This document shows positions 584 through 8,464 of a DNA stretch of 11,563 bases, piece by piece. The notes beneath the pieces are model-generated. The model had not been told where the DNA came from. It made no database searches and saw nothing but the letters and a program-made list of their open reading frames with translations. Every line of letters starts with the position of its first letter. The first letter of the stretch is position 1. Source of the DNA: an uncultured Brachyspira sp. (GTDB taxonomy: Bacteria > Spirochaetota > Brachyspiria > Brachyspirales > Brachyspiraceae). Made by a program: the position numbers and the translations under genes. The stretch lies in contig CAKVCJ010000030.1 in the NCBI GenBank assembly GCA_934725655.1, forward strand, positions 1 to 11,563. The letters are read 5' to 3'.

Positions 584-603
584 TTGTACCTCCTAATTTA
601 CTT

Positions 604-631
604 AATATATTAAATATTTAAAAAAAGTCAA
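604..631 (-). promoter_or_regulatory. Promoter of the Bax inhibitor-1/YccA-like gene
   Basis: On the minus strand TTGACT (631-626) is followed after 16 bases by TATATT (609-604). The expected transcript start is about 597, leaving a short leader that carries the AGGAGG site. In such AT-rich DNA chance matches are common, but position relative to the gene is right. Confidence 0.5.
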
Positions 632-667
632 TCAAATAACAATAAATTATATAGCATTAAAATAACT

Positions 668-2235
668 TCATTTTGTTTTTTTATATATTATATAAATATT
701 ATTGCTAAATATCATAGGAGCATCAATTCTTATACCATTTTTACTGCTATCTATATAATATATAATATCAGAATCTTCAGCTTCATTCCAATATCCTGTT
801 TTATTAAAAGCTTCCCCCATATCAGAAAACCAATCTTTATTATCTTCTACATCACCAAACTCTATACTAAATGATTTTAAATTAGCATCCTTTGCTATAG
901 CATCTACAGCATCCATATAATATTCATACTTATACGGTTCTTTATAATTTTTAGTATAAACAATAGTATTAAATCCCATATTAAAAGTATTTAATATAAA
1001 AAATATAACTAATATATTTATAATACCATCTTTATTTTGTAGTTTTAAATAATATAGTAAGTATATAATAGGAGAAAAAGATAAAGCAAAAGCTCCATAT
1101 TGATAACGAAATAATCCAGGTATACCATTGGCTATATTTGTAAATATTATTGTTACAGGAAAATATAATATAAATAATAAAAATAATTCCTTTGCTATTA
1201 CTAAAGAAGTATCAGAACCATTATAATATAAACTATTAAATTTATAGTCTTTGTTTTTTAAATATTTAATAAATGAAAATATAAATGCAAATAATACAAA
1301 TATAATAGAAAATATTAACATTATAATACCAAAATATTTAAACGGATTATTAGTATAAAACTCTATTATATGTTTTAAACTATTTCCATAAAGAGTTGAA
1401 AACTCATTTGTAGGAAACATAATTAATGAATGTACTTGAGGATATATAATACCATAATTTACACTTCCTGCCTTGTTTAACATTTTATCTAAATTGACAA
1501 AATTATTTCTTATTTCATAAACTAAATATGGTAAATATGTTAAAAAAGCTAAAAAAACGCCTATTAGTAACCCTAATAAATTTTTTAAAGTTTTTTTATA
1601 TCTTATAATAAGATATACAATTAGTGTCGGCACTATACCATAATAAACAGCAAAATGTGCTTGTCCCATCAAGGCCAAAATAGGAAACATCAAAATCGAA
1701 GGCAAAAAGCCTTTTCTGAAGAGGCATACTCACCAAACATAGTTAAAAATAAAAAAGAAAAAGAAAGTGTAATATATGGATTGTAAAATATCATATTGGT
1801 ACTAAAATAATATATATTCATTAATACCATAGAAGATATAATAGCAAAAACTGTTAAAGGAAACCGTTTAAAAACCCAATACAAAAATATCATAACAGGA
1901 ATTAACATTGAAATAAGATTATATATACGAGCAATAAAAAAATTACCATTGGCTAATTTATAACATAGAAGAAAATGCAAATAAAAAAAACCTCCAGGAA
2001 CTCTTGGCTTACTATTATCATGTAAACTGCCCATTTCAAAACGTGCTCCAAGATGAGGAATGGTATTACTTTCATAATGTATTTTCATATCATGAAAGTG
2101 CGATGAAAAATCTCTATAATAAATCTGCCCTTCTTTAGGCAGCAAGTATATTCTTAATAAAAGAGCAAATATAATAGTAAATACAATTAAAAAATATACT
2201 AAATATTTATTTTCAGACTTCATAATACTATCCAT
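668..2235 (-). pseudogene. GT39-like integral membrane glycosyltransferase, frame broken by one base
   Basis: Two overlapping open frames, 1690-2235 (181 residues) and 668-1705 (345 residues), are the two halves of one protein of about 522 residues. The first half has a membrane span at residues 11-32, then an extracytoplasmic loop with acidic residues (YYRDFSSHFHD, D42 and D49) and RVPGGFFYLHFLL, as in GT-C glycosyltransferases that use lipid-linked sugars (GT39/PMT, ArnT-like). The second half begins LPSILMFPILALMGQAHFA, also typical of that fold, followed by about six further spans. Joining needs one extra T in the T5 run at 1704-1708 (EKAF then LPSI). This may be a real mutation, a phase-variable tract, a -1 ribosomal slip, or a sequencing error. 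Start ATG 2233-2235 or 2221-2223 cannot be separated; only weak GGATAA/GGATAG sites precede them. Sugar and acceptor are not predictable. Transcribed from the promoter at 2255-2282. Confidence 0.75.
1704..1708 (-). other. Frame-break site (T5 run) in the glycosyltransferase gene
   Basis: On the minus strand the sequence reads GAA AAG GCT TTT TGC, which leads to a stop (CLRF*) within five codons. Reading back by one base after TTT gives TTG CCT TCG and restores the long downstream frame. The + strand shows five A between GGC and GCC. One more A would make the gene whole. Confidence 0.75.
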
Positions 2236-2254
2236 TAATATAATACTTTATCCA

Positions 2255-2282
2255 AGTATATAGGTATAAATAAAAAACTCAA
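2255..2282 (-). promoter_or_regulatory. Promoter of the glycosyltransferase gene
   Basis: Minus-strand TTGAGT (2282-2277), 16-base spacer, TATACT (2260-2255). The -35 box overlaps the stop codon of the first gene-tail repeat, so the repeat and promoter are physically fused. Predicted transcript start is about 2248, 13 bases before the first ATG. Confidence 0.5.
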
Positions 2283-2320
2283 GCCCATTTAGCGAACTTC
2301 CTAAACGCAGTAACAGCCTG
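2281..2320 (-). repeat. Isolated gene tail, copy 1 (relic of the pentapeptide gene 3' end)
   Basis: This 40-bp stretch matches 3635-3674, the coding end of the pentapeptide-repeat gene, at 38 of 40 positions. In frame it reads ISYFIQAVTAFRKFAKWA followed by TGA, against SVQTVTAFRKFAKGA in the full gene. No start codon or body belongs to it. It lies between the first HicB gene and the glycosyltransferase promoter. The 19-bp core CTGTTACTGCGTTTAGGAA (2298-2316) is identical in all three copies. Confidence 0.9.
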
Positions 2321-2335
2321 AATAAAATATGATAT

Positions 2336-2734
2336 TTATTTATAATAACTAGATATATAATTTTTGGCAGCTAATGATATAAATTCACTTCTATTTGATG
2401 ATAAGTTATCTATTGTCTTTAATAAACTCTCGTCTAATGTAATATCTATTCTCTTCTTCTTCTCTCTTGAAACTTTCACCTCTATTAACATTCTCGTTAT
2501 AGGTTCATCTTCAGTCTCTTTAATTATCTTTTCTAAACTAGAGGCTTTTGGAATTTTCTCGCCATCTTCTATCATACCATCAATATGCATTTGAAGTGCT
2601 ACTTTAGAATTATTTACTGTTTCCTCTAAAGTTTTACCTGCACTTACACATCCGTCAAAATCGTAAAATGCTGAATTATAACCTGATTTTACTTTATAAA
2701 TATTTGCTACAAATGTTTCTATATTTTTTTTCAT
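2336..2734 (-). CDS. hicB: HicB-family antitoxin with ribbon-helix-helix domain
   Basis: 132 residues in two domains. Residues 8-70 have the HicB fold pattern: FYDFDGCVSAGKTLEE, then ALQMHIDGMIEDGEKIPKAS, which matches the family consensus (PDxPGCxSxGxTxEEA, HxxxMxEDGExIPxPS). Residues 94-129 (RIDITLDESLLKTIDNL, then SNRSEFISLAAKNYI) form a ribbon-helix-helix DNA-binding domain. Such antitoxins bind and block HicA and repress their own operon as a complex. The gene follows hicA after 24 bases, the usual hicA-hicB order. I see no clear Shine-Dalgarno sequence before the ATG, only AT-rich DNA, so translation may depend on coupling to hicA. Likely operator: the direct repeat at 3012-3034. A copy of the pentapeptide-gene tail follows its stop. 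Family call is strong. Confidence 0.92.
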   Translation of the reverse strand: MKKNIETFVANIYKVKSGYNSAFYDFDGCVSAGKTLEETVNNSKVALQMHIDGMIEDGEKIPKASSLEKIIKETEDEPITRMLIEVKVSREKKKRIDITLDESLLKTIDNLSSNRSEFISLAAKNYISSYYK

Positions 2735-2758
2735 AATAAAATATTTTATAAAAACAAA

Positions 2759-2956
2759 CTATTTATTTAAAATCTTTATCTTAGCTTGTTTTTCTATACT
2801 TTTTATCACAGCTACCTGTAAATCAACATTACTATGATAAGGTACTGTAACTCTTCCCTTTTTCGTATTATGTTTAAACTGTTTATGGCTTCCTTTCTGA
2901 GCAATTTGAAACCAGCCATCTTTTTTTAGAAGTGTTATAATTTCTGATGCTTTCAA
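2759..2956 (-). CDS. hicA: HicA-family toxin, predicted mRNA interferase (TTG start)
   Basis: 65 residues, the normal size of HicA. The sequence shows KASEIITLLKKDGW, then QKGSHKQFKH with the catalytic-type histidine at 24, then GRVTVPYHSNVDLQ, then a final helix containing IKSIEKQAKI. This is the double-stranded-RNA-binding-like fold of HicA, which cleaves mRNA when free of HicB. The start is TTG (2954-2956), not ATG: an AAGGAGA site (2963-2969) lies 6 bases upstream and the family's N-terminus begins exactly here. A rare start codon would keep toxin output low relative to antitoxin. A second in-frame start is not available. A 37-codon open frame (2883-2996, minus) with its own AAGGAG site overlaps the 5' end in another frame. 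All key residues are present, so the toxin looks intact. Confidence 0.93.
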   Translation of the reverse strand: MKASEIITLLKKDGWFQIAQKGSHKQFKHNTKKGRVTVPYHSNVDLQVAVIKSIEKQAKIKILNK

Positions 2957-3011
2957 TGAAATTCTCCTTATTAATAATAAAACAATTCATAACCATTTCA
3001 ACACTCCTTTT

Positions 3012-3049
3012 TATACACATAAGTATACACATAAACCATTTTTTGTCAA
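3012..3049 (-). promoter_or_regulatory. Promoter and probable HicB operator of hicA-hicB
   Basis: Minus-strand TTGACA (3049-3044), 16-base spacer, TATACT (3027-3022). The -10 box sits inside two direct copies of TATACACATAA (+ strand 3012-3022 and 3024-3034), 12 bases apart centre to centre, with the palindrome GTATAC between them. Short repeats about one helical turn apart over the -10 box are what a ribbon-helix-helix repressor such as HicB would bind. Binding is inference. Confidence 0.65.
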
Positions 3050-3060
3050 CTCACAATCAC

Positions 3061-3095
3061 CCCCCTTAGAAAATTTCCTAAACGCAGTAACAGTC
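3061..3095 (-). repeat. Isolated gene tail, copy 2 (degenerate)
   Basis: The minus strand reads WTVTAFRKFSKG in the same frame as the pentapeptide protein's C-terminus, with a stop directly upstream and no coding body. The 19-bp core (3075-3093) is identical to the other copies; outside the core it has decayed (10 of 14 bases match on the 3' side). It separates the two toxin-antitoxin pairs. Confidence 0.85.
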
Positions 3096-3124
3096 CATTA
3101 TATAAAAACACATTCATAAATTAT

Positions 3125-3358
3125 TTAAATTTTTTCTATAAGATTATTATATTCTTCTACATCGAGATTTATTTCATTTAATATTTTTCTCATAAGCGGT
3201 CTTGATATTACCTTGCTTGAGTGAAAAGGTATAACGGTGCATCGTCCGTCCTCATGTTTATAAAAAGCATGACTTCCTTTCTGCCTATGTTTAACAAACC
3301 CTAATAAAAACAACAATTTTTCTATAGTTTTTGCCTCCTTTAATATTAGCTTACTCAT
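3125..3358 (-). CDS. hicA: HicA-family toxin of the second toxin-antitoxin pair
   Basis: 77 residues. It carries a variant HicA signature, KHRQKGSHAFYKHEDGR with the catalytic-type histidine at 30, then CTVIPFHSSKVISRPLMRKI and an acidic C-terminal tail (DVEEYNNLIEKI). This is the YcfA-like branch, a predicted mRNA interferase. Its ATG overlaps the stop of the upstream hicB by four bases (ATGA, 3355-3358), so translation is coupled and the antitoxin is made first. It is clearly not a copy of the hicA at 2759-2956: only the GSH and the PxHS motifs are shared. Its stop is followed after 29 bases by gene-tail copy 2. All expected residues are present, so it is probably functional. Confidence 0.9.
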   Translation of the reverse strand: MSKLILKEAKTIEKLLFLLGFVKHRQKGSHAFYKHEDGRCTVIPFHSSKVISRPLMRKILNEINLDVEEYNNLIEKI

Positions 3359-3579
3359 ACAAGCTCTATCTCTTCTACCTTTACAAACTCTGGAATGGCA
3401 TTCTTCTCTTCAATGTCCATCTCTTCAAGACATAAATCCAAAACCTCTTTTAATCTTATATGCAGCTCTTCCAAAGTGTCAGCCTGTGTATGTGCCCCCA
3501 CTATTGAAGGAATATAGCCCACATAAACATTGGTTTCTTTATCATATTCTATATATGCAAAAAACTTTTTCTTATCCAT
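3355..3579 (-). CDS. hicB: Short HicB-family antitoxin of the second pair
   Basis: 74 residues: FFAYIEYDKETNVYVGYIPS, then VGAHTQADTLEELHIRLKEVLDLCLEEM, matching the short HicB family (usual pattern YxGYVPxLPGxxTQGxTLEEL). Unlike the other HicB here it ends after this domain and has no ribbon-helix-helix segment, so it can neutralise its toxin but has no visible DNA-binding part of its own. Order is hicB then hicA, with a four-base overlap. The ATG (3577-3579) is supported by GAGGT (3586-3590), six bases upstream. The 55 bases to the pentapeptide gene stop contain a weak promoter, and readthrough from that gene is also possible. Confidence 0.88.
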   Translation of the reverse strand: MDKKKFFAYIEYDKETNVYVGYIPSIVGAHTQADTLEELHIRLKEVLDLCLEEMDIEEKNAIPEFVKVEEIELV

Positions 3580-3608
3580 TAGCAGACCTCAAAGCATTTA
3601 ATATTTTA

Positions 3609-3635
3609 ATTATAACATAAATTGGTATTAATTTA
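3609..3635 (-). promoter_or_regulatory. Weak promoter candidate for hicB-hicA
   Basis: Minus-strand TATAAT (3614-3609) preceded after 16 bases by a poor -35 match (TTAAAT, overlapping the stop of the pentapeptide gene). The distance from gene tail to -10 box is nearly the same as in copy 1. Confidence 0.35.
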
Positions 3636-5168
3636 AGCCCCTTTAGCGAACTTCCTAAACGCAGTAACAGTCTGCACCGAGCCGTACCAAAACAACACCT
3701 TACCTAAAAAATAAACTAAAACGCCGAATATTTTTAATAATAAATGCATATTAGATGCAGCATATTTTATTAAAAGTGTGTAATCTGTAGGTATAAAATA
3801 TTTTATTAACTCTGGAAATAAATTTTTATAATATAAACATATTATATTAGATTGAGTTAAATCAGGAATATAAAAAACTATAAAACAAATAACCGTTATA
3901 GCTATAGTCATACCTAAAGCCCTAATCCAATTCTGCCCATTGTCGCTGTAGAGTGAACTTAATTCAATAGAAAGTATGTCTCCTAAAGTTTTGAAATTTT
4001 TATTTTTCTGCCAATCTTTTATTAAATCTTCTTTGTGTTTATCAATTTCCTTAGCCTTATATTCTAATGCATCAATAGCATTGTTTCTGGCATAAGCCTG
4101 CTGTTTAAGAAATAAAGCACTTTCACGATTGGCGAATTTATGCACTTTGAAATTAACAGGATTGATTAAACCGCCATCAATAATGGAACCTTTAAAATCT
4201 GCTTCTTTTACTTCTATATTTTGTAAATCAATTTTTCCTGTTATTCTTATATTATAAAAATGTATTTTATTTATTTCATTATTTTTTTTATTTATATCTT
4301 TTAATATTTCTTTTTTCTCATCTTCCAATAAATAATAAAAAAATCTATCATAATAATTATTTTCTATAAAATTATTATCTATTGATAGAATAGAATTATT
4401 ATCATTAAATTTAATTTCATTAAATGATAATTTACTTATTGTAGAACCACGAAAATACATAATTGTATTCATAGTTGTATTTTTGAATTCTAAATTTGAT
4501 TTAAAATTAGATATATAAAAACAAATAATATTATTTAATTCACATTTTTTACTAAATATTAAAATTGAATGAAATGTATTTCTTATAAAAAATGAAATAC
4601 CGTTAAATTTTGAATTCTTAATTTCAACTCTGCAGTCAAAATTACAATATGCAAATGATAACATATTATTAAATTCAATATTATCAAACTCTAATCGTTG
4701 CATTTTATAAAAATCAGAATGTGAAAATACTAATAGTTTATTAAAATTAGAATTATAAAATCCAACATTTAATTGCAGAGTAGTATTGCGAAAATATACT
4801 GAACCATTAAAGTTAACATTTTGAATGAATAGCCCACAAGAAATTATAATATTTTCAAAATTAATATTATAATTTAATTCATATTTATCTTCTTTTTTTG
4901 TACTAAAATATTGAATTACATTCTCTAAACTAAAAGAGATTGGAATTTTTTCTTCAACATTATCATTATTTATAACCCTTATATTTAATGTATAGTCTTT
5001 TTCTTCTTCATCTGTAATAGTCAAACTATAACCTTGTAAAATTTTTCCTTTATTAAGAGCTTGACCTAACAAATTTAATTTAAGATATAATATTAATTGT
5101 TCTTTTGTTTTACATTCTCTAATATTTCTTGGGGATAATATTGTTTCATTAGTATCTAATACAATCAT
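3633..5168 (-). CDS. Pentapeptide-repeat-like protein with two C-terminal membrane segments
   Basis: 511 residues. Residues 1-100 are a soluble N-terminal part with no family I recognise. Residues 103-250 and again 303-330 show degenerate five-residue repeats with F, L or I at every fifth place (VNFNG, VYFRN, VGFYN, LVFSH, LEFDN, LSFAY, LEFKN), the sign of a pentapeptide-type right-handed beta helix. Residues 345-390 (ESALFLKQQAYARNNAIDALEYKAKEID in outline) form the helical linker often seen after such repeats in membrane-bound members. Membrane spans lie at about 415-434 and 474-495, and the last residues, RKFAKG, are positive. The protein is probably membrane-anchored with the beta helix in the cytoplasm; its function is unknown. 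Start ATG 5166-5168 has AAGAG (5175-5179) six bases upstream and a promoter at 5196-5223. Its 3' end recurs twice downstream. Confidence 0.8.
   Translation of the reverse strand: MIVLDTNETILSPRNIRECKTKEQLILYLKLNLLGQALNKGKILQGYSLTITDEEEKDYTLNIRVINNDNVEEKIPISFSLENVIQYFSTKKEDKYELNYNINFENIIISCGLFIQNVNFNGSVYFRNTTLQLNVGFYNSNFNKLLVFSHSDFYKMQRLEFDNIEFNNMLSFAYCNFDCRVEIKNSKFNGISFFIRNTFHSILIFSKKCELNNIICFYISNFKSNLEFKNTTMNTIMYFRGSTISKLSFNEIKFNDNNSILSIDNNFIENNYYDRFFYYLLEDEKKEILKDINKKNNEINKIHFYNIRITGKIDLQNIEVKEADFKGSIIDGGLINPVNFKVHKFANRESALFLKQQAYARNNAIDALEYKAKEIDKHKEDLIKDWQKNKNFKTLGDILSIELSSLYSDNGQNWIRALGMTIAITVICFIVFYIPDLTQSNIICLYYKNLFPELIKYFIPTDYTLLIKYAASNMHLLLKIFGVLVYFLGKVLFWYGSVQTVTAFRKFAKGA
3635..3674 (-). 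repeat. Gene tail, copy 3 (in place, coding)
   Basis: The presumed source copy: it is the last 12 codons plus stop of the pentapeptide gene, encoding TVTAFRKFAKGA. It matches copy 1 at 38 of 40 positions and copy 2 across the whole 19-bp core (3652-3670). Upstream of base 3674 the similarity to copy 1 stops abruptly. Confidence 0.9.
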
Positions 5169-5223: not shown

Positions 5224-5260
5224 TAATAATGCATTTTATAAAAATAGTTTTTTATTTATC

Positions 5261-5320
5261 TGCAGGGCTTTGCCCCGCACCCCACTTCTTTTATTGGTAT
5301 AAAAGAAGCAAAAGAACTGC
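5261..5320. repeat. GC-richer palindromic repeat element between pentapeptide and restriction-modification genes
   Basis: Two adjacent hairpins: GCAGGGC-TTT-GCCCCGC (5262-5278, one mismatch) and a perfect 9-bp stem CTTCTTTTA/TAAAAGAAG (5285-5293 and 5300-5308) with a 6-base loop. The element ends AAAAGAACTGCA. The first 15 bases (5261-5275) recur inverted at 8046-8060, and the AAGAACTG end recurs at 8009-8018 and, inverted, at 8201-8208. It lies downstream of the restriction-modification gene, but no T run follows either stem in that direction, so it is not a classical terminator. Confidence 0.8.
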
Positions 5321-5371: not shown

Positions 5372-7798
5372 TCACTCCTTCAAAAACCCATGCTCATACA
5401 CCTTAACGGCAATTTTTTGGGCAAGAATATCCATTTTAGACTTGAGGTCGGCAAGTAATGAGTTGTAAGTCTCGTCTTTAGAGGTTGGATTCATACGCCC
5501 CTTGTCATTAAACTTCTGGAAAAACGCACGTATGTCATAGTAGGACGCATTAACATTAATGAGGTCGAAAGAATGATAATATTTCCATAGAGACAGCCCA
5601 GCCTCAAAAACCGCATCAGACTCGCTTGAAAATTTTAAAGGCGAGGACGATTTTGTATTAGTGCTGAAAAGACTGTCATTGTCTGAAATAGTTTTTTTAA
5701 TTTTGCCGGAAAGGAAATCAGTCATAAAGTGAGAGGCGAAAGAGTCTTTAGCATTAAGCTCATTTTCGGTGAACGGTATCCAATGATTAACGCCCTGCTC
5801 TGATGAAATACGGTTCTGCGGATGAAACAAAGTGAAAGCCGCGCAATCATTTTGAAACTCAGTGTCATCTTCCCAAGTATTTTTGGGGTAAAGGAACTGG
5901 TCTCTATCATTGAGCCAATCAGCCTCGATACAATGACGCACAGATAAATAAATGCATGATTGTAACAAATTATTTTTTGTAATTATATTTGTATGATTGT
6001 GATTATTATCAGATGAAATGCGTATATAATTATAATTTTGAAAATCATTTCCTCTAGTATTCATTATGCCAATTTCTTCTGAACTATTATCATAAAAATT
6101 TTTATACCAATCATTAATATATTTGCAATTAGAGTATGAATATATTTTTCTATTTCCTATAAAAATTTGATTCTCATCATATATATCATATAAATAACTA
6201 TCTATAATTTCCTTTTTTAGAGTATTCCATACAAAAAAACCTATAGGGAATTTACCTTTCACATTATCAAAAGTGTCAGCTGGTACAACAAACATTTTTT
6301 CTAATTTTGCTAAAAATATATTTCTAAAATCTTTAAAATTTGGAGATTGTATAACTTTTAATTTTGAAAATTCAGCTATAATACAATTAGGAATTTCTTT
6401 ATATATTCTTATTAAAAATTGTGCAAATATTTCATTTGAAGAAGCACCCATAATTTTTTTATATTTTTTTACTATATTATTTTCTGTTGCAACTTTTGAT
6501 TTATTTTTACTAGTGCCAGATATAGTACCTGTTGAAGCAGCCTCCGCGTAAGGCGGGTTGATATAGATTACTAATTTCTTCCTACTCTCTTCATCTTCTA
6601 CTATTCGCCTCAAATCTTCTGGAAGCTTATCAAACTCGTCATTCAAAAAGTCAAATTGAAATATATGATTCTCTAGCAAGTTCGCCCCATTCTTCACCCG
6701 CTCTTTCATTATCTCTACATCTGCCTTGTCTAAAGTAGAAGCCCATATGTTATATTTATTCGTAAGCCCCGCAAGCAGATTGCCTGTGCCTGCCGCACAG
6801 TCCCATATATAATATTCCTCCTGCCAATTCTCCCCCAATACTTCCGCTATATATTCCTGACTCTTCTCAACCCATATCTGCGGCGTGAAAAATGACCCCT
6901 TTCGCTCTCTTATATCCTGCGGCACAAGTAAATCCCGCCTCTCTATTATATAATCCCAATATTCGCTTTTAGGCGGTCTTTGATACCTCTTCCAAAACTC
7001 ATTATGCGACTTCTGCTTATCATAAAAATACGCTTCCTTGCTCGATGCAAGCCCCATATCGTCTATTTTTCTGTCAAGCTCATAATGGTCAGTTTTTAGT
7101 ATTACATATAGTTTTTCTTTTAATGTTAAATTATTCTCGCTTAGTAAATCCGCCAAATAAAAATCGGCATCTATTATACCAAAACTTTTAGCCCTATCCC
7201 AATCCACAGATATAGATTCTTTTACTGCATTAAGCCATTTTGAATATATATTAACAAAATTATTCTTGTCAATCTGTACTTTCGATAAGGAGTTTTTACC
7301 CGCTGTAAAATTAACCCTTATAAACTCTTTTAATTCCCTCTCATCATCATCAAATTTATAAATATAGCTTTCATTTTTCAAAGTATTTTCTACTAAGTCG
7401 TATAGCTGTTTAAACTCTTTAGTGTTATGGTCAGAAGGTGTAACATTCCAATTAAAATCATTCTGATTAAATACATCAAGCACTTTATAATACTGAATAA
7501 AAGCGATTTTCTCAGCATCAAAAGCCCCCAAGAAAGGCGGCGGCAAATGCTTATCAAATACCCTCTTCTTTCCTATAGTGAGTATAAGCTGCACAAAGGA
7601 TTCATATATATCATTTTTATTTCCTTTTTTAGCTTCTGCCCACAAAAAATATTCAGTATCTTTTTTGTCAGCTTCTTTTTTCGGAGCGATACTAAAATCA
7701 ATCTCCTCTATAATTTGAGTATTATCAAAAGAGTAAAAATAATCTCTAGCGACTTTATTTTTTAATTCTTCTTCTCTGATAGTTTTACTGTAAGACAT
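5372..7798 (-). CDS. Single-chain restriction-modification protein, type IIG style (nuclease plus N6-adenine methylase)
   Basis: 808 residues. The N-terminal region has a PD-(D/E)XK-like nuclease pattern: D34 (EEIDF), then E55-A-K57 in FLWAEAKKG. The methylase core follows with motif X-like RKGSFFTP (299-306), motif I DCAAGTGN (333-340, S-adenosylmethionine binding) and motif IV NPPY (414-417, catalytic), the gamma-class order for adenine-N6 methylases. The remainder, from about 480, should hold the target recognition domain. One chain would thus methylate and cut; no separate specificity or nuclease gene is present. The cleavage role is less certain than methylation. Only one ATG is possible at the 5' end (next Met is residue 248). 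No ribosome binding site is visible, and the promoter suggests a leaderless mRNA. Base composition is mosaic: a 60-base line near 6780 has 30 G+C, one near 6300 only 10. Confidence 0.82.
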   Translation of the reverse strand: MSYSKTIREEELKNKVARDYFYSFDNTQIIEEIDFSIAPKKEADKKDTEYFLWAEAKKGNKNDIYESFVQLILTIGKKRVFDKHLPPPFLGAFDAEKIAFIQYYKVLDVFNQNDFNWNVTPSDHNTKEFKQLYDLVENTLKNESYIYKFDDDERELKEFIRVNFTAGKNSLSKVQIDKNNFVNIYSKWLNAVKESISVDWDRAKSFGIIDADFYLADLLSENNLTLKEKLYVILKTDHYELDRKIDDMGLASSKEAYFYDKQKSHNEFWKRYQRPPKSEYWDYIIERRDLLVPQDIRERKGSFFTPQIWVEKSQEYIAEVLGENWQEEYYIWDCAAGTGNLLAGLTNKYNIWASTLDKADVEIMKERVKNGANLLENHIFQFDFLNDEFDKLPEDLRRIVEDEESRKKLVIYINPPYAEAASTGTISGTSKNKSKVATENNIVKKYKKIMGASSNEIFAQFLIRIYKEIPNCIIAEFSKLKVIQSPNFKDFRNIFLAKLEKMFVVPADTFDNVKGKFPIGFFVWNTLKKEIIDSYLYDIYDENQIFIGNRKIYSYSNCKYINDWYKNFYDNSSEEIGIMNTRGNDFQNYNYIRISSDNNHNHTNIITKNNLLQSCIYLSVRHCIEADWLNDRDQFLYPKNTWEDDTEFQNDCAAFTLFHPQNRISSEQGVNHWIPFTENELNAKDSFASHFMTDFLSGKIKKTISDNDSLFSTNTKSSSPLKFSSESDAVFEAGLSLWKYYHSFDLINVNASYYDIRAFFQKFNDKGRMNPTSKDETYNSLLADLKSKMDILAQKIAVKVYEHGFLKE

Positions 7799-7907: not shown

Positions 7908-8060
7908 TTTTATTCAACTTTTTCCCGCCTTCGCACCCATACCTAAAGGTACTTCTTTCAGTCGCCCTGAAGGACTCCTTTCAGTCGCAGGCACTTCCTT
8001 CGGTCGTAAAAGAACTGGTGTGCTGCACAATGTGTACTTCGTTAAGGGCAAAGCCCTGCA
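7908..8060 (+). repeat. Composite repeat element, left copy
   Basis: Part of the 666-base gap without a gene (7799-8464). It begins with a 42-bp arm (7913-7954: TTCAAC, CCCGCCTTCGCACCCAT, TAAAGGTACTT), which recurs inverted at 8284-8325. Inside are TACCTAAAGGTA (7940-7951, palindrome), CTTTCAGTCGC twice (7955-7965 and 7978-7988, 23 bases apart) and a third related CTTCGGTCG (7998-8006), then AAAAGAACTG (8009-8018). It ends with GGGCAAAGCCCTGCA (8046-8060), the inverse of 5261-5275. It is much richer in G+C than the DNA around it. No open frame here looks real. Confidence 0.8.
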
Positions 8061-8096
8061 AATATCTTAACAAATAATTTTTTTATTTAATATATA

Positions 8097-8200: not shown

Positions 8201-8325
8201 CAGTTCTTCGCGAAGCGTACCCTAAGGGTAAAAACTTCGACGAAGTCCGCACAGTGACTGAATGGAGTGTCTGCGACCATAGAAAGTACCTTTATATATG
8301 GGTGTGAAGGCGGAAAAAAATTGAA
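8201..8325 (-). repeat. Composite repeat element, right copy (inverted)
   Basis: The mirror of the left copy: read on the minus strand it starts with the 42-bp arm (8325-8284, 37 of 42 identical to 7913-7954), then GGTCGCAGACACTCCATTCA, and ends CGAAGAACTG (8210-8201). Three perfect palindromes stand almost end to end: CTTCGCGAAG (8206-8215), TACCCTAAGGGTA (8218-8230) and ACTTCGACGAAGT (8234-8246). A 60-codon open frame across it (8152-8334, minus) is composed of repeat sequence and is not called. Confidence 0.8.
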
Positions 8326-8464
8326 CAAAAACATATTTTAATTATAAACCAAAAAGGATTTGGCTCTAACTAATCATTATCATATATTTTATATAAAAAT
8401 ATTATGTATATATAAAAAATATTTCCGATAATATCAATAGTAAAATCTATTATGGAGTTCATAG

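What the first reader, a model, noticed from the sequence alone, without database searches (positions are those of the whole stretch)
2281..3674. Serial [toxin-antitoxin + gene-tail] units behind a pentapeptide-repeat gene
The 3' end of the pentapeptide gene (3635-3674) recurs as bodiless tails at 2281-2320 (38/40 identical) and 3061-3095, all sharing one 19-bp core. In transcription order the layout is: full gene with tail, hicB-hicA, tail, hicA-hicB, tail. The two toxin-antitoxin pairs are unrelated in type and order, so this is not a simple tandem duplication. It resembles repeated insertion at the 3' end of a gene with the end rebuilt each time, as integrating elements do, but without any recombinase gene. 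An alternative is decay of a row of paralogous pentapeptide genes with toxin-antitoxin pairs between them.
Basis: partly seen in the sequence, partly recalled or inferred. Interest (0 to 1): 0.8.

Follow-up and report, generated by a model that had tools for sequence, protein, structure and literature searches.

The report
Swappable toxin-antitoxin units behind pentapeptide genes
In the gut bacterium Brachyspira, small toxin-antitoxin gene pairs are stacked directly behind pentapeptide-repeat genes, often separated by a copy of the gene's last 40 bases, and related species hold different sets and orders of these pairs, so the gene end looks like a docking joint for swapping small addiction modules.

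Summary
The repeats are real: three direct copies of the last ~40 bp of a pentapeptide-repeat (PPR) gene lie in a Brachyspira window (most likely B. pilosicoli) around hicBA and hicAB; 0 matches in 200 shuffles.

In stretches from 26 Brachyspira genomes plus the window I aligned 34 tails at 24 loci. At 20 of 24 a toxin-antitoxin (TA) module or a piece of one follows a tail: hicBA, hicAB, a convergent hicBA', or brnTA. Content and order differ between genomes. Two locus pairs differ at the tail by one [TA + tail] unit (772 and 789 bp); a third pair (620 bp) is less clean. One PPR-tail-hicBA'-tail prefix leads into three different units.

So unit-wise insertion or loss is supported for tails behind TA modules; decay is right for 7 of 8 leading bodiless tails, which are longer PPR remnants. 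The nearest PF00589 recombinase found is 16 kb from a tail, and at one locus TA modules abut without tails.

I favour homologous recombination at the conserved gene end; a site-specific enzyme acting in trans is not excluded. It resembles SCC/CIME accretion and dif modules.

The parts
3633..5168 (-). Intact pentapeptide-repeat gene (511 aa, PF13576), leading gene of the array; C-terminus YFLGKVLFWYGSVQTVTAFRKFAKGA
   Evidence: 98% identical B. pilosicoli protein P0001
3633..3675 (-). Leading tail: last 43 bp of the PPR gene including the stop codon
3355..3579 (-). hicB antitoxin of unit 1 (hicBA order)
   Evidence: PF15919 27.3 bits, cut-off 27; 92-97% aa relatives behind tails at 7 other loci, plus an 85% piece at L131
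3125..3358 (-). hicA toxin of unit 1
   Evidence: PF07927 56.9 bits
3056..3098 (-). Second tail, bodiless (homology about 3061-3095), behind hicBA; reading frame drifted at its 3' end
3022..3049 (-). Promoter-like sequence of unit 2 directly behind the tail: TTGACA, 16 bp, TATACT (11 of 12 consensus positions)
   Evidence: best of 11 promoter-like sites in 2200-3800, where 10.7 are expected from shuffles, so suggestive only
2759..2956 (-). hicA toxin of unit 2 (hicAB order)
   Evidence: PF07927 67.4 bits
2336..2734 (-). hicB antitoxin of unit 2
   Evidence: PF15919 80.2 bits
2279..2321 (-). Third tail, bodiless, about 15 bp behind the hicB stop codon
1..623 (-). Chromosomal flank (BaxI-like membrane protein gene, cut by the window edge) shared with the single-tail locus L023 and the one-unit locus L024
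   Evidence: 93% and 96% DNA identity; PF12811 162.6 bits

Best explanation
The 3' ends of Brachyspira PPR genes are a docking joint for short, self-contained TA modules. Modules start directly behind the gene's stop codon. Many have a second copy of the last ~40 bp of the gene on their far side, so that [TA + tail] behaves as a unit of 0.6-0.8 kb that can be gained, lost, reordered or exchanged while the gene keeps a complete end. SHOWN by comparison: tail-bounded units, permuted order, occupied/unoccupied pairs, different units behind the same prefix, and higher cross-species identity of the modules than of two yardsticks. INFERRED: that the joint works by ordinary homologous recombination between the strongly conserved gene ends, on DNA passed between strains and species (possibly by the VSH-1 transfer agent). 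INFERRED: that TA addiction helps the stacks persist. UNEXPLAINED: how each TA module was first joined to a tail.
For: (1) 34 tails at 24 of 29 scanned loci; at 20 of 24 a TA module or piece follows a tail, and four TA sets use the slot. (2) Orders: window PPR-t-hicBA-t-hicAB-t; L126 PPR-t-hicAB-t-hicBA; L127 PPR-t-hicBA'-t-hicAB-t-hicBA. (3) Occupied/unoccupied pairs: L126/L129 (789 bp; right flank 144 of 149 identical), L024/L023 (772 bp; right flank 129 of 146), and, less clean, L132/L135 (620 bp; left flank 138 of 150, right 97 of 128). (4) L127, L131 and L132 share PPR-t-hicBA'-t at 87-93% and then lead into hicAB, an hicBA piece and a brnTA start piece. (5) hicBA is 87-89% identical to 7 genomes outside the B. 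pilosicoli group and hicAB 87-88% to 3, while the tetR-comEC stretch is 71-74% to the 20 such genomes with a hit. (6) PPR genes are mosaic: against L018, codons 1-418 are 90.5% and codons 485-end plus hicBA 86.9%, with no DNA match between, which fits crossing-over inside the conserved gene end. (7) hicBA and hicAB hits at 87% identity or more lie beside a tail in 7 of 7 and 4 of 4 cases.
Against: At locus A (L016, L017, L018, L019, L025, L130, L134) no second tail was found though up to three TA modules abut; hicBA sits exactly between a tail's end and the brnTA start without a tail copy. So a tail copy is not obligatory. L135 is not a clean unoccupied site: it carries brnTA and, further on, a piece matching the hicBA' end plus 27 bp of a tail. 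Less similar hicAB relatives (75%, G007 and G019) lie without tails. The test of whether tail sequence travels with the downstream unit, on 26 of the 34 tails, was inconclusive: left part 3431/5000, middle 240/5000, right 398/5000 label shuffles reach the observed value, uncorrected for relatedness. About 40 bp is short for RecA-type recombination (recalled). The collection holds one genome per species, so no within-species polymorphism was seen. No pair fixes the direction, gain or loss. One core stretch and one flank gene (79-85% to 16 genomes and 72% to 2) are thin yardsticks for transfer.
Confidence: 0.6

Rival explanations
1. Site-specific integration in trans: the last ~40 bp of the PPR gene is an attachment site and the TA units are integrase-less elements mobilised by a recombinase encoded elsewhere (a Xer-like or phage enzyme), in the manner of CIMEs, SCC composite islands or dif modules.
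For: Tails are direct repeats ending at the stop codon. TA-following tails begin -1 to +5 nt from the same point for hicAB, hicBA' and the window's hicBA (+14 for brnTA in L001), while 7 of 8 leading bodiless tails begin 12-35 nt upstream. PF00589 recombinases exist in 26 of 26 genomes. B. pilosicoli B2904 and WesB are reported to hold many copies of an integrase gene absent from 95/1000 (PMC3532143, passages).
Against: Of 113 listed PF00589 matches the nearest to a tail is 16 kb away (G017), in a score class seen in 23 of 26 genomes; 10 of 22 tail-bearing contigs carry any match. PF00239 is in 1 of 26 genomes, on a contig with no known tail. PF00665 is in 12 of 26 genomes, 85 of the matches in G013, the nearest to a tail about 13 kb off. 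Identical-codon share in the last 14 codons of intact genes is 0.72, inside the 0.67-0.92 of nine earlier blocks. Terminal tails carry 12-14 mismatches in L128, L131 and L132, though not in the window or L024. Locus A stacks lack tail copies. Short contigs leave room for an unseen neighbour.
Confidence: 0.2
2. Decay of a row of paralogous PPR genes with TA modules between them: each bodiless tail is what is left of a former full gene.
For: Several leading bodiless tails are longer PPR remnants: G017 matches residues 421-511 with 10 stops, G022:C124 458-511 with 2 stops, G014:C2 464-511. PPR bodies are often broken or replaced: an AlwI-like endonuclease beside the tail in L130, an RmrA-like gene in L021.
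Against: In an ungapped comparison none of the 10 TA-following tails keeps PPR sequence more than 1 nt beyond the last 43 bp, although four TA sets and several loci are involved. No locus among the 24 shows two PPR genes separated by a TA module. L129 and L023 look like sites without the unit, not like losses of gene bodies.
Confidence: 0.15
3. Tandem or unequal exchange inside one lineage only, with no transfer between species: arrays expand and contract by slippage between tails.
For: Direct repeats of ~40 bp allow it, and single units differ between relatives such as L126 and L128/L129.
Against: hicBA and hicAB are more alike between species (87-89%) than a core stretch (71-74%) or the flank gene (72-85%), and the TA sets sit at four different flank-defined loci.
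Confidence: 0.05

Closest known systems
CIMEs and tandem accretion at 3' gene ends (ICE/IME relatives; PMC7563491, passages read)
   Same: Cargo-only elements without recombinase, bounded by direct repeats, stacked in tandem at the 3' end of a protein gene in variable order.
   Different: There they were found in arrays with ICEs or IMEs that supply the enzyme, and gene-carrying ones are 1.2-13 kb. Here units are 0.6-0.8 kb, carry only a TA pair, and no enzyme-bearing partner was found.
SCC composite islands at orfX/rlmH (PMC7029136, passages read)
   Same: Insertions in one gene's end, separated by short, slightly varied direct repeats.
   Different: SCC insertion uses ccr recombinases and the target is orfX/rlmH. 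Here no such gene was found near, and the target is a PPR gene family at several loci.
dif/pdif modules of Acinetobacter plasmids (PMC13141974, passages read)
   Same: TA modules are the common cargo, and modules between short repeats are shuffled between replicons.
   Different: pdif sites are Xer sites in C/D or D/C orientation, mainly on plasmids (one listed 2026 paper, PMC12907356, reports chromosomal ones; listing only). Here the tails of an array are all in direct orientation, lie in coding sequence, and several are on megabase contigs.
HicAB and BrnTA type II TA systems
   Same: Toxin and antitoxin families by Pfam.
   Different: Nothing unusual was seen in the proteins; the arrangement is what differs.

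Membership tests
HicAB type II TA | HicA toxin domain (PF07927) in both pairs | tested here: met
   56.9 and 67.4 bits, cut-off 27
HicAB type II TA | HicB-type antitoxin next to each toxin | tested here: met
   PF15919 80.2 bits for unit 2; only 27.3 (cut-off 27) for unit 1
CIME / accretion element | Direct repeats at both ends, stacked at a 3' gene end | tested here: met
   not met at locus A, where no second tails were found
CIME / accretion element | Repeats are att sites of a known ICE/IME recombinase | tested here: not met
   no linked PF00589 or PF00239 gene found; an unlinked enzyme cannot be excluded
SCC composite island | ccr serine recombinase (PF00239-type, recalled) | tested here: not met
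   PF00239 in 1 of 26 genomes, on another contig than that genome's tails
SCC composite island | Target is the 3' end of rlmH | tested here: not met
   target is a PPR gene
dif/pdif module | Neighbouring sites in inverted orientation (partly recalled; passages name C- and D-internal modules) | tested here: not met
   in all 8 arrays with two or more tails the tails are on one strand
dif/pdif module | Sites bound and recombined by XerC/XerD | not testable with these tools
   the Brachyspira dif site was not identified here
Integron cassette array | Linked integrase | tested here: not met
   no linked PF00589 gene found
Integron cassette array | attC-type foldable sites | not tested
   no fold of the tails was run

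The most novel reading that the evidence does not exclude
Brachyspira has an integrase-less cassette system: the last ~40 bp of PPR genes is a specific docking site, used across the genus, at which TA modules of several families are inserted, excised and shuffled between loci and species, the gene end being rebuilt each time.
Probability: 0.25. Interest if true: 0.75.

Novelty: new variant of a known kind. Interest (0 to 1): 0.52.

Why it matters
TA modules turn up in variable chromosomal spots, and how such small genes without a mobility enzyme get there is often unclear (recalled). Here the joints can be read: a conserved gene end recurs at the borders of modules from several TA sets, and unoccupied and rearranged versions exist in related species. 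That makes the mechanism testable with two short repeats on a plasmid, and offers a way to track TA gain and loss in a spirochaete for which genetic tools are few. One search of a 5.39-million-paper open library with six terms, at least four required, found no paper. Of 15 papers holding both Brachyspira and toxin-antitoxin only PMC3532143 was opened (passages only); it has no mention of pentapeptide or hicA. PMC3163572 (passages) has none of toxin, pentapeptide or hicA. That is a narrow search.

Tried and rejected
Whole-genome work on the window's own strain was impossible. Plasmid and phage records gave no megablast match to the window, and the exact core gave none in viral contigs, so a phage or plasmid origin found no support. 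A second gene end (the 3' end of the 808-aa gene) was tested as another recurring tail: 6 matches in 5 of 26 genomes, one of them just behind the PPR tail of L021. It was not pursued as a general rule. Codon conservation gave no support for a constrained DNA site. The test that tail sequence travels with the downstream unit was inconclusive. A rank comparison of tail start points, done by hand (4 TA joints: hicAB, hicBA', window hicBA, brnTA; against 7 leading tails, L128 and L129 counted once, L130 counted as leading although short) gives about 0.02 one-sided. It is small and partly shaped by what the 43-bp scan can detect, so I do not lean on it. Rfam found nothing in the window at its gathering scores. 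PADLOC had no match to the PPR protein or the 808-aa protein at 0.001. The promoter scan found no excess over shuffles.
Full report
What is in the window. The window is from Brachyspira. The exact 19-bp core occurs in only three stretches of the genome collection, all Brachyspira, and the PPR protein is 98% identical to a B. pilosicoli protein, so the strain is most likely B. pilosicoli. On the - strand the order is: an 808-aa gene (5372-7798; no Pfam hit, though an NPPY motif recalled from adenine methyltransferases is visible), the PPR gene (3633-5168), hicB-hicA (3125-3579), hicA-hicB (2336-2956), a gene of unknown family split over two frames, and a BaxI-like gene. Copies of the PPR gene's last ~40 bp lie at its own end, behind hicBA and behind hicAB. 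No match occurs in 200 shuffles.

The genus survey. With a handle from the named B. hampsonii locus I searched 26 Brachyspira genomes. A 28-bp tail pattern with up to 3 mismatches is in 10 of 26 genomes, a 30-bp pattern nearer the stop codon in 15 of 26, and the PPR protein in 21 of 26. I fetched stretches around these places and the better TA hits. Of 29 loci scanned, window included, 24 hold a tail, 34 tails in all; L136, L137, L139, L140 and L141 hold none. A profile built from 30 of these tails scores 20 bits or more at all of them, against a best of 9.8 in reversed sequence.

What follows the tails. At 20 of 24 loci a TA module or a recognisable piece of one lies behind a tail; the four without are L020, L021, L023 and L138. 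Four sets occur: unit 1 hicBA and unit 2 hicAB on the strand of the PPR gene, unit 3 hicBA' and unit 4 brnTA on the opposite strand. Unit 4 was identified by PF04365, 92.4 bits. By shared downstream flank genes at least four loci are involved: A (L016, L017, L018, L019, L025, L130, L134), B (L127, L131, L132, L133, L135), C (L126, L128, L129) and the window's own (window, L023, L024).

Arrays and order. Window: PPR-t-hicBA-t-hicAB-t. L126: PPR-t-hicAB-t-hicBA. L127: PPR-t-hicBA'-t-hicAB-t-hicBA. L024: remnant-t-hicAB-t. L131 and L132: PPR-t-hicBA'-t and then a piece of hicBA or of brnTA. L001: PPR-t-brnTA-t. Ten tails at 8 loci thus lie behind a TA module with no gene body.

Occupied and unoccupied sites. 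L126 matches L129 through one tail, then carries hicAB and a second tail, and continues with L129 (144 of 149 identical). L024 relates to L023 in the same way (right flank 129 of 146). Left identities for these two pairs over 150 bp are 75.2% and 77.5%; the PPR gene is a short remnant in L129, L024 and L023, so less is shared. L132 relates to L135 through hicBA' (left 138 of 150), but its right flank is only 97 of 128, and L135 itself holds brnTA and further on a piece of hicBA' end with 27 bp of a tail, so it is not a clean empty site. None of the pairs says which state is older.

Where the tails begin. TA-following tails start between -1 and +5 nt of one point for hicAB, hicBA' and the window's hicBA, and at +14 for brnTA in L001. 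Leading bodiless tails start 12 to 35 nt further upstream at L021, L023, L024, L025, L128, L129 and L142. L130, behind an AlwI-like endonuclease gene, is a leading tail that is short (+12). Some longer remnants hold stop codons, so leading copies look like decayed genes.

Evidence on mechanism. Against a strict attachment site: identical-codon share in the tail of 10 intact genes is not raised; terminal tails are worn in L128, L131 and L132; of 113 listed PF00589 matches the nearest to a tail is 16 kb away; PF00239 is in 1 of 26 genomes; PF00665, in 12 of 26, has no match nearer than about 13 kb. Several tails lie on contigs of 11-24 kb, so an unseen neighbour is possible, and B. pilosicoli strains with many integrase copies are reported (PMC3532143, passages). 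For recombination by homology: the C-terminal residues are highly conserved across otherwise divergent PPR proteins, and PPR genes are mosaics joined inside that end. Against L018 the window is 90.5% over codons 1-418, without DNA match to codon 485, then 86.9% through the tail and hicBA. For movement between species: unit 1 is 87-89% identical to 7 genomes and unit 2 87-88% to 3 genomes outside the B. pilosicoli group, while the window's tetR-comEC stretch (PF00440, PF03772) is 71-74% to the 20 such genomes with a hit and 88-90% within the group. The flank gene stretch gives 79-85% to 16 and 72% to 2, so the excess is clear against one yardstick and modest against the other. More distant relatives of both units also exist (hicBA 76-80%, hicAB 65-75%), and the two such hicAB loci that were fetched, L139 and L140, have no tail. 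Brachyspira has a transducing agent that moves random 7.5-kb fragments (PMC3163572, passages), a plausible but untested carrier.

What does not fit. At locus A up to three TA modules are stacked and no second tail was found, and hicBA lies exactly between the tail's stop codon and the point where brnTA begins elsewhere. The docking point is therefore the gene's end, and a tail copy on the far side is frequent but not required. How the first TA-tail joints arose is unexplained.

Comparison with the known. The pattern works like accretion of cargo-only elements at 3' gene ends: CIMEs (PMC7563491, passages), SCC composite islands (PMC7029136, passages), or TA-rich dif modules (PMC13141974, passages). 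It fails the recombinase criterion of the first two as far as tested and the inverted-site criterion of the third. I file it as a new variant of a known kind, without claiming membership.

Noticed in passing
window 600-2256: A gene of unknown family (no Pfam family above cut-off) split over two frames (1690-2235 and 668-1705) sits between the last tail and the flank gene; L023 and L024 show no match to it, and G011 has a 77% relative elsewhere that is also split.
   Followed up: partly
window 5240-5275, 7908-7965, 8046-8081, 8273-8330: Inverted repeats, GC-rich in part, flank the 808-aa gene; similar text appears between array and flank in L132, so it looks like a dispersed intergenic repeat.
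   Followed up: no
L020 9278-9330 and L021 8866-8905: A piece of the 3' end of the 808-aa gene lies directly behind the PPR tail, so other gene ends may also survive without bodies.
   Followed up: partly
L130 2400-3980 and L021 7585-8730: Defence-type genes (AlwI-like endonuclease; M78/HTH gene resembling RmrA) stand where the PPR body would be, which makes the spots look like defence islands.
   Followed up: no
L127, L128, L018, L135: Several TA copies in the arrays are broken by stops or frameshifts, so some stacks are decaying.
   Followed up: no
G013 (B. pilosicoli group): 85 PF00665 (integrase-type transposase) matches in this one genome, against 0-3 in each of the other 25.
   Followed up: no
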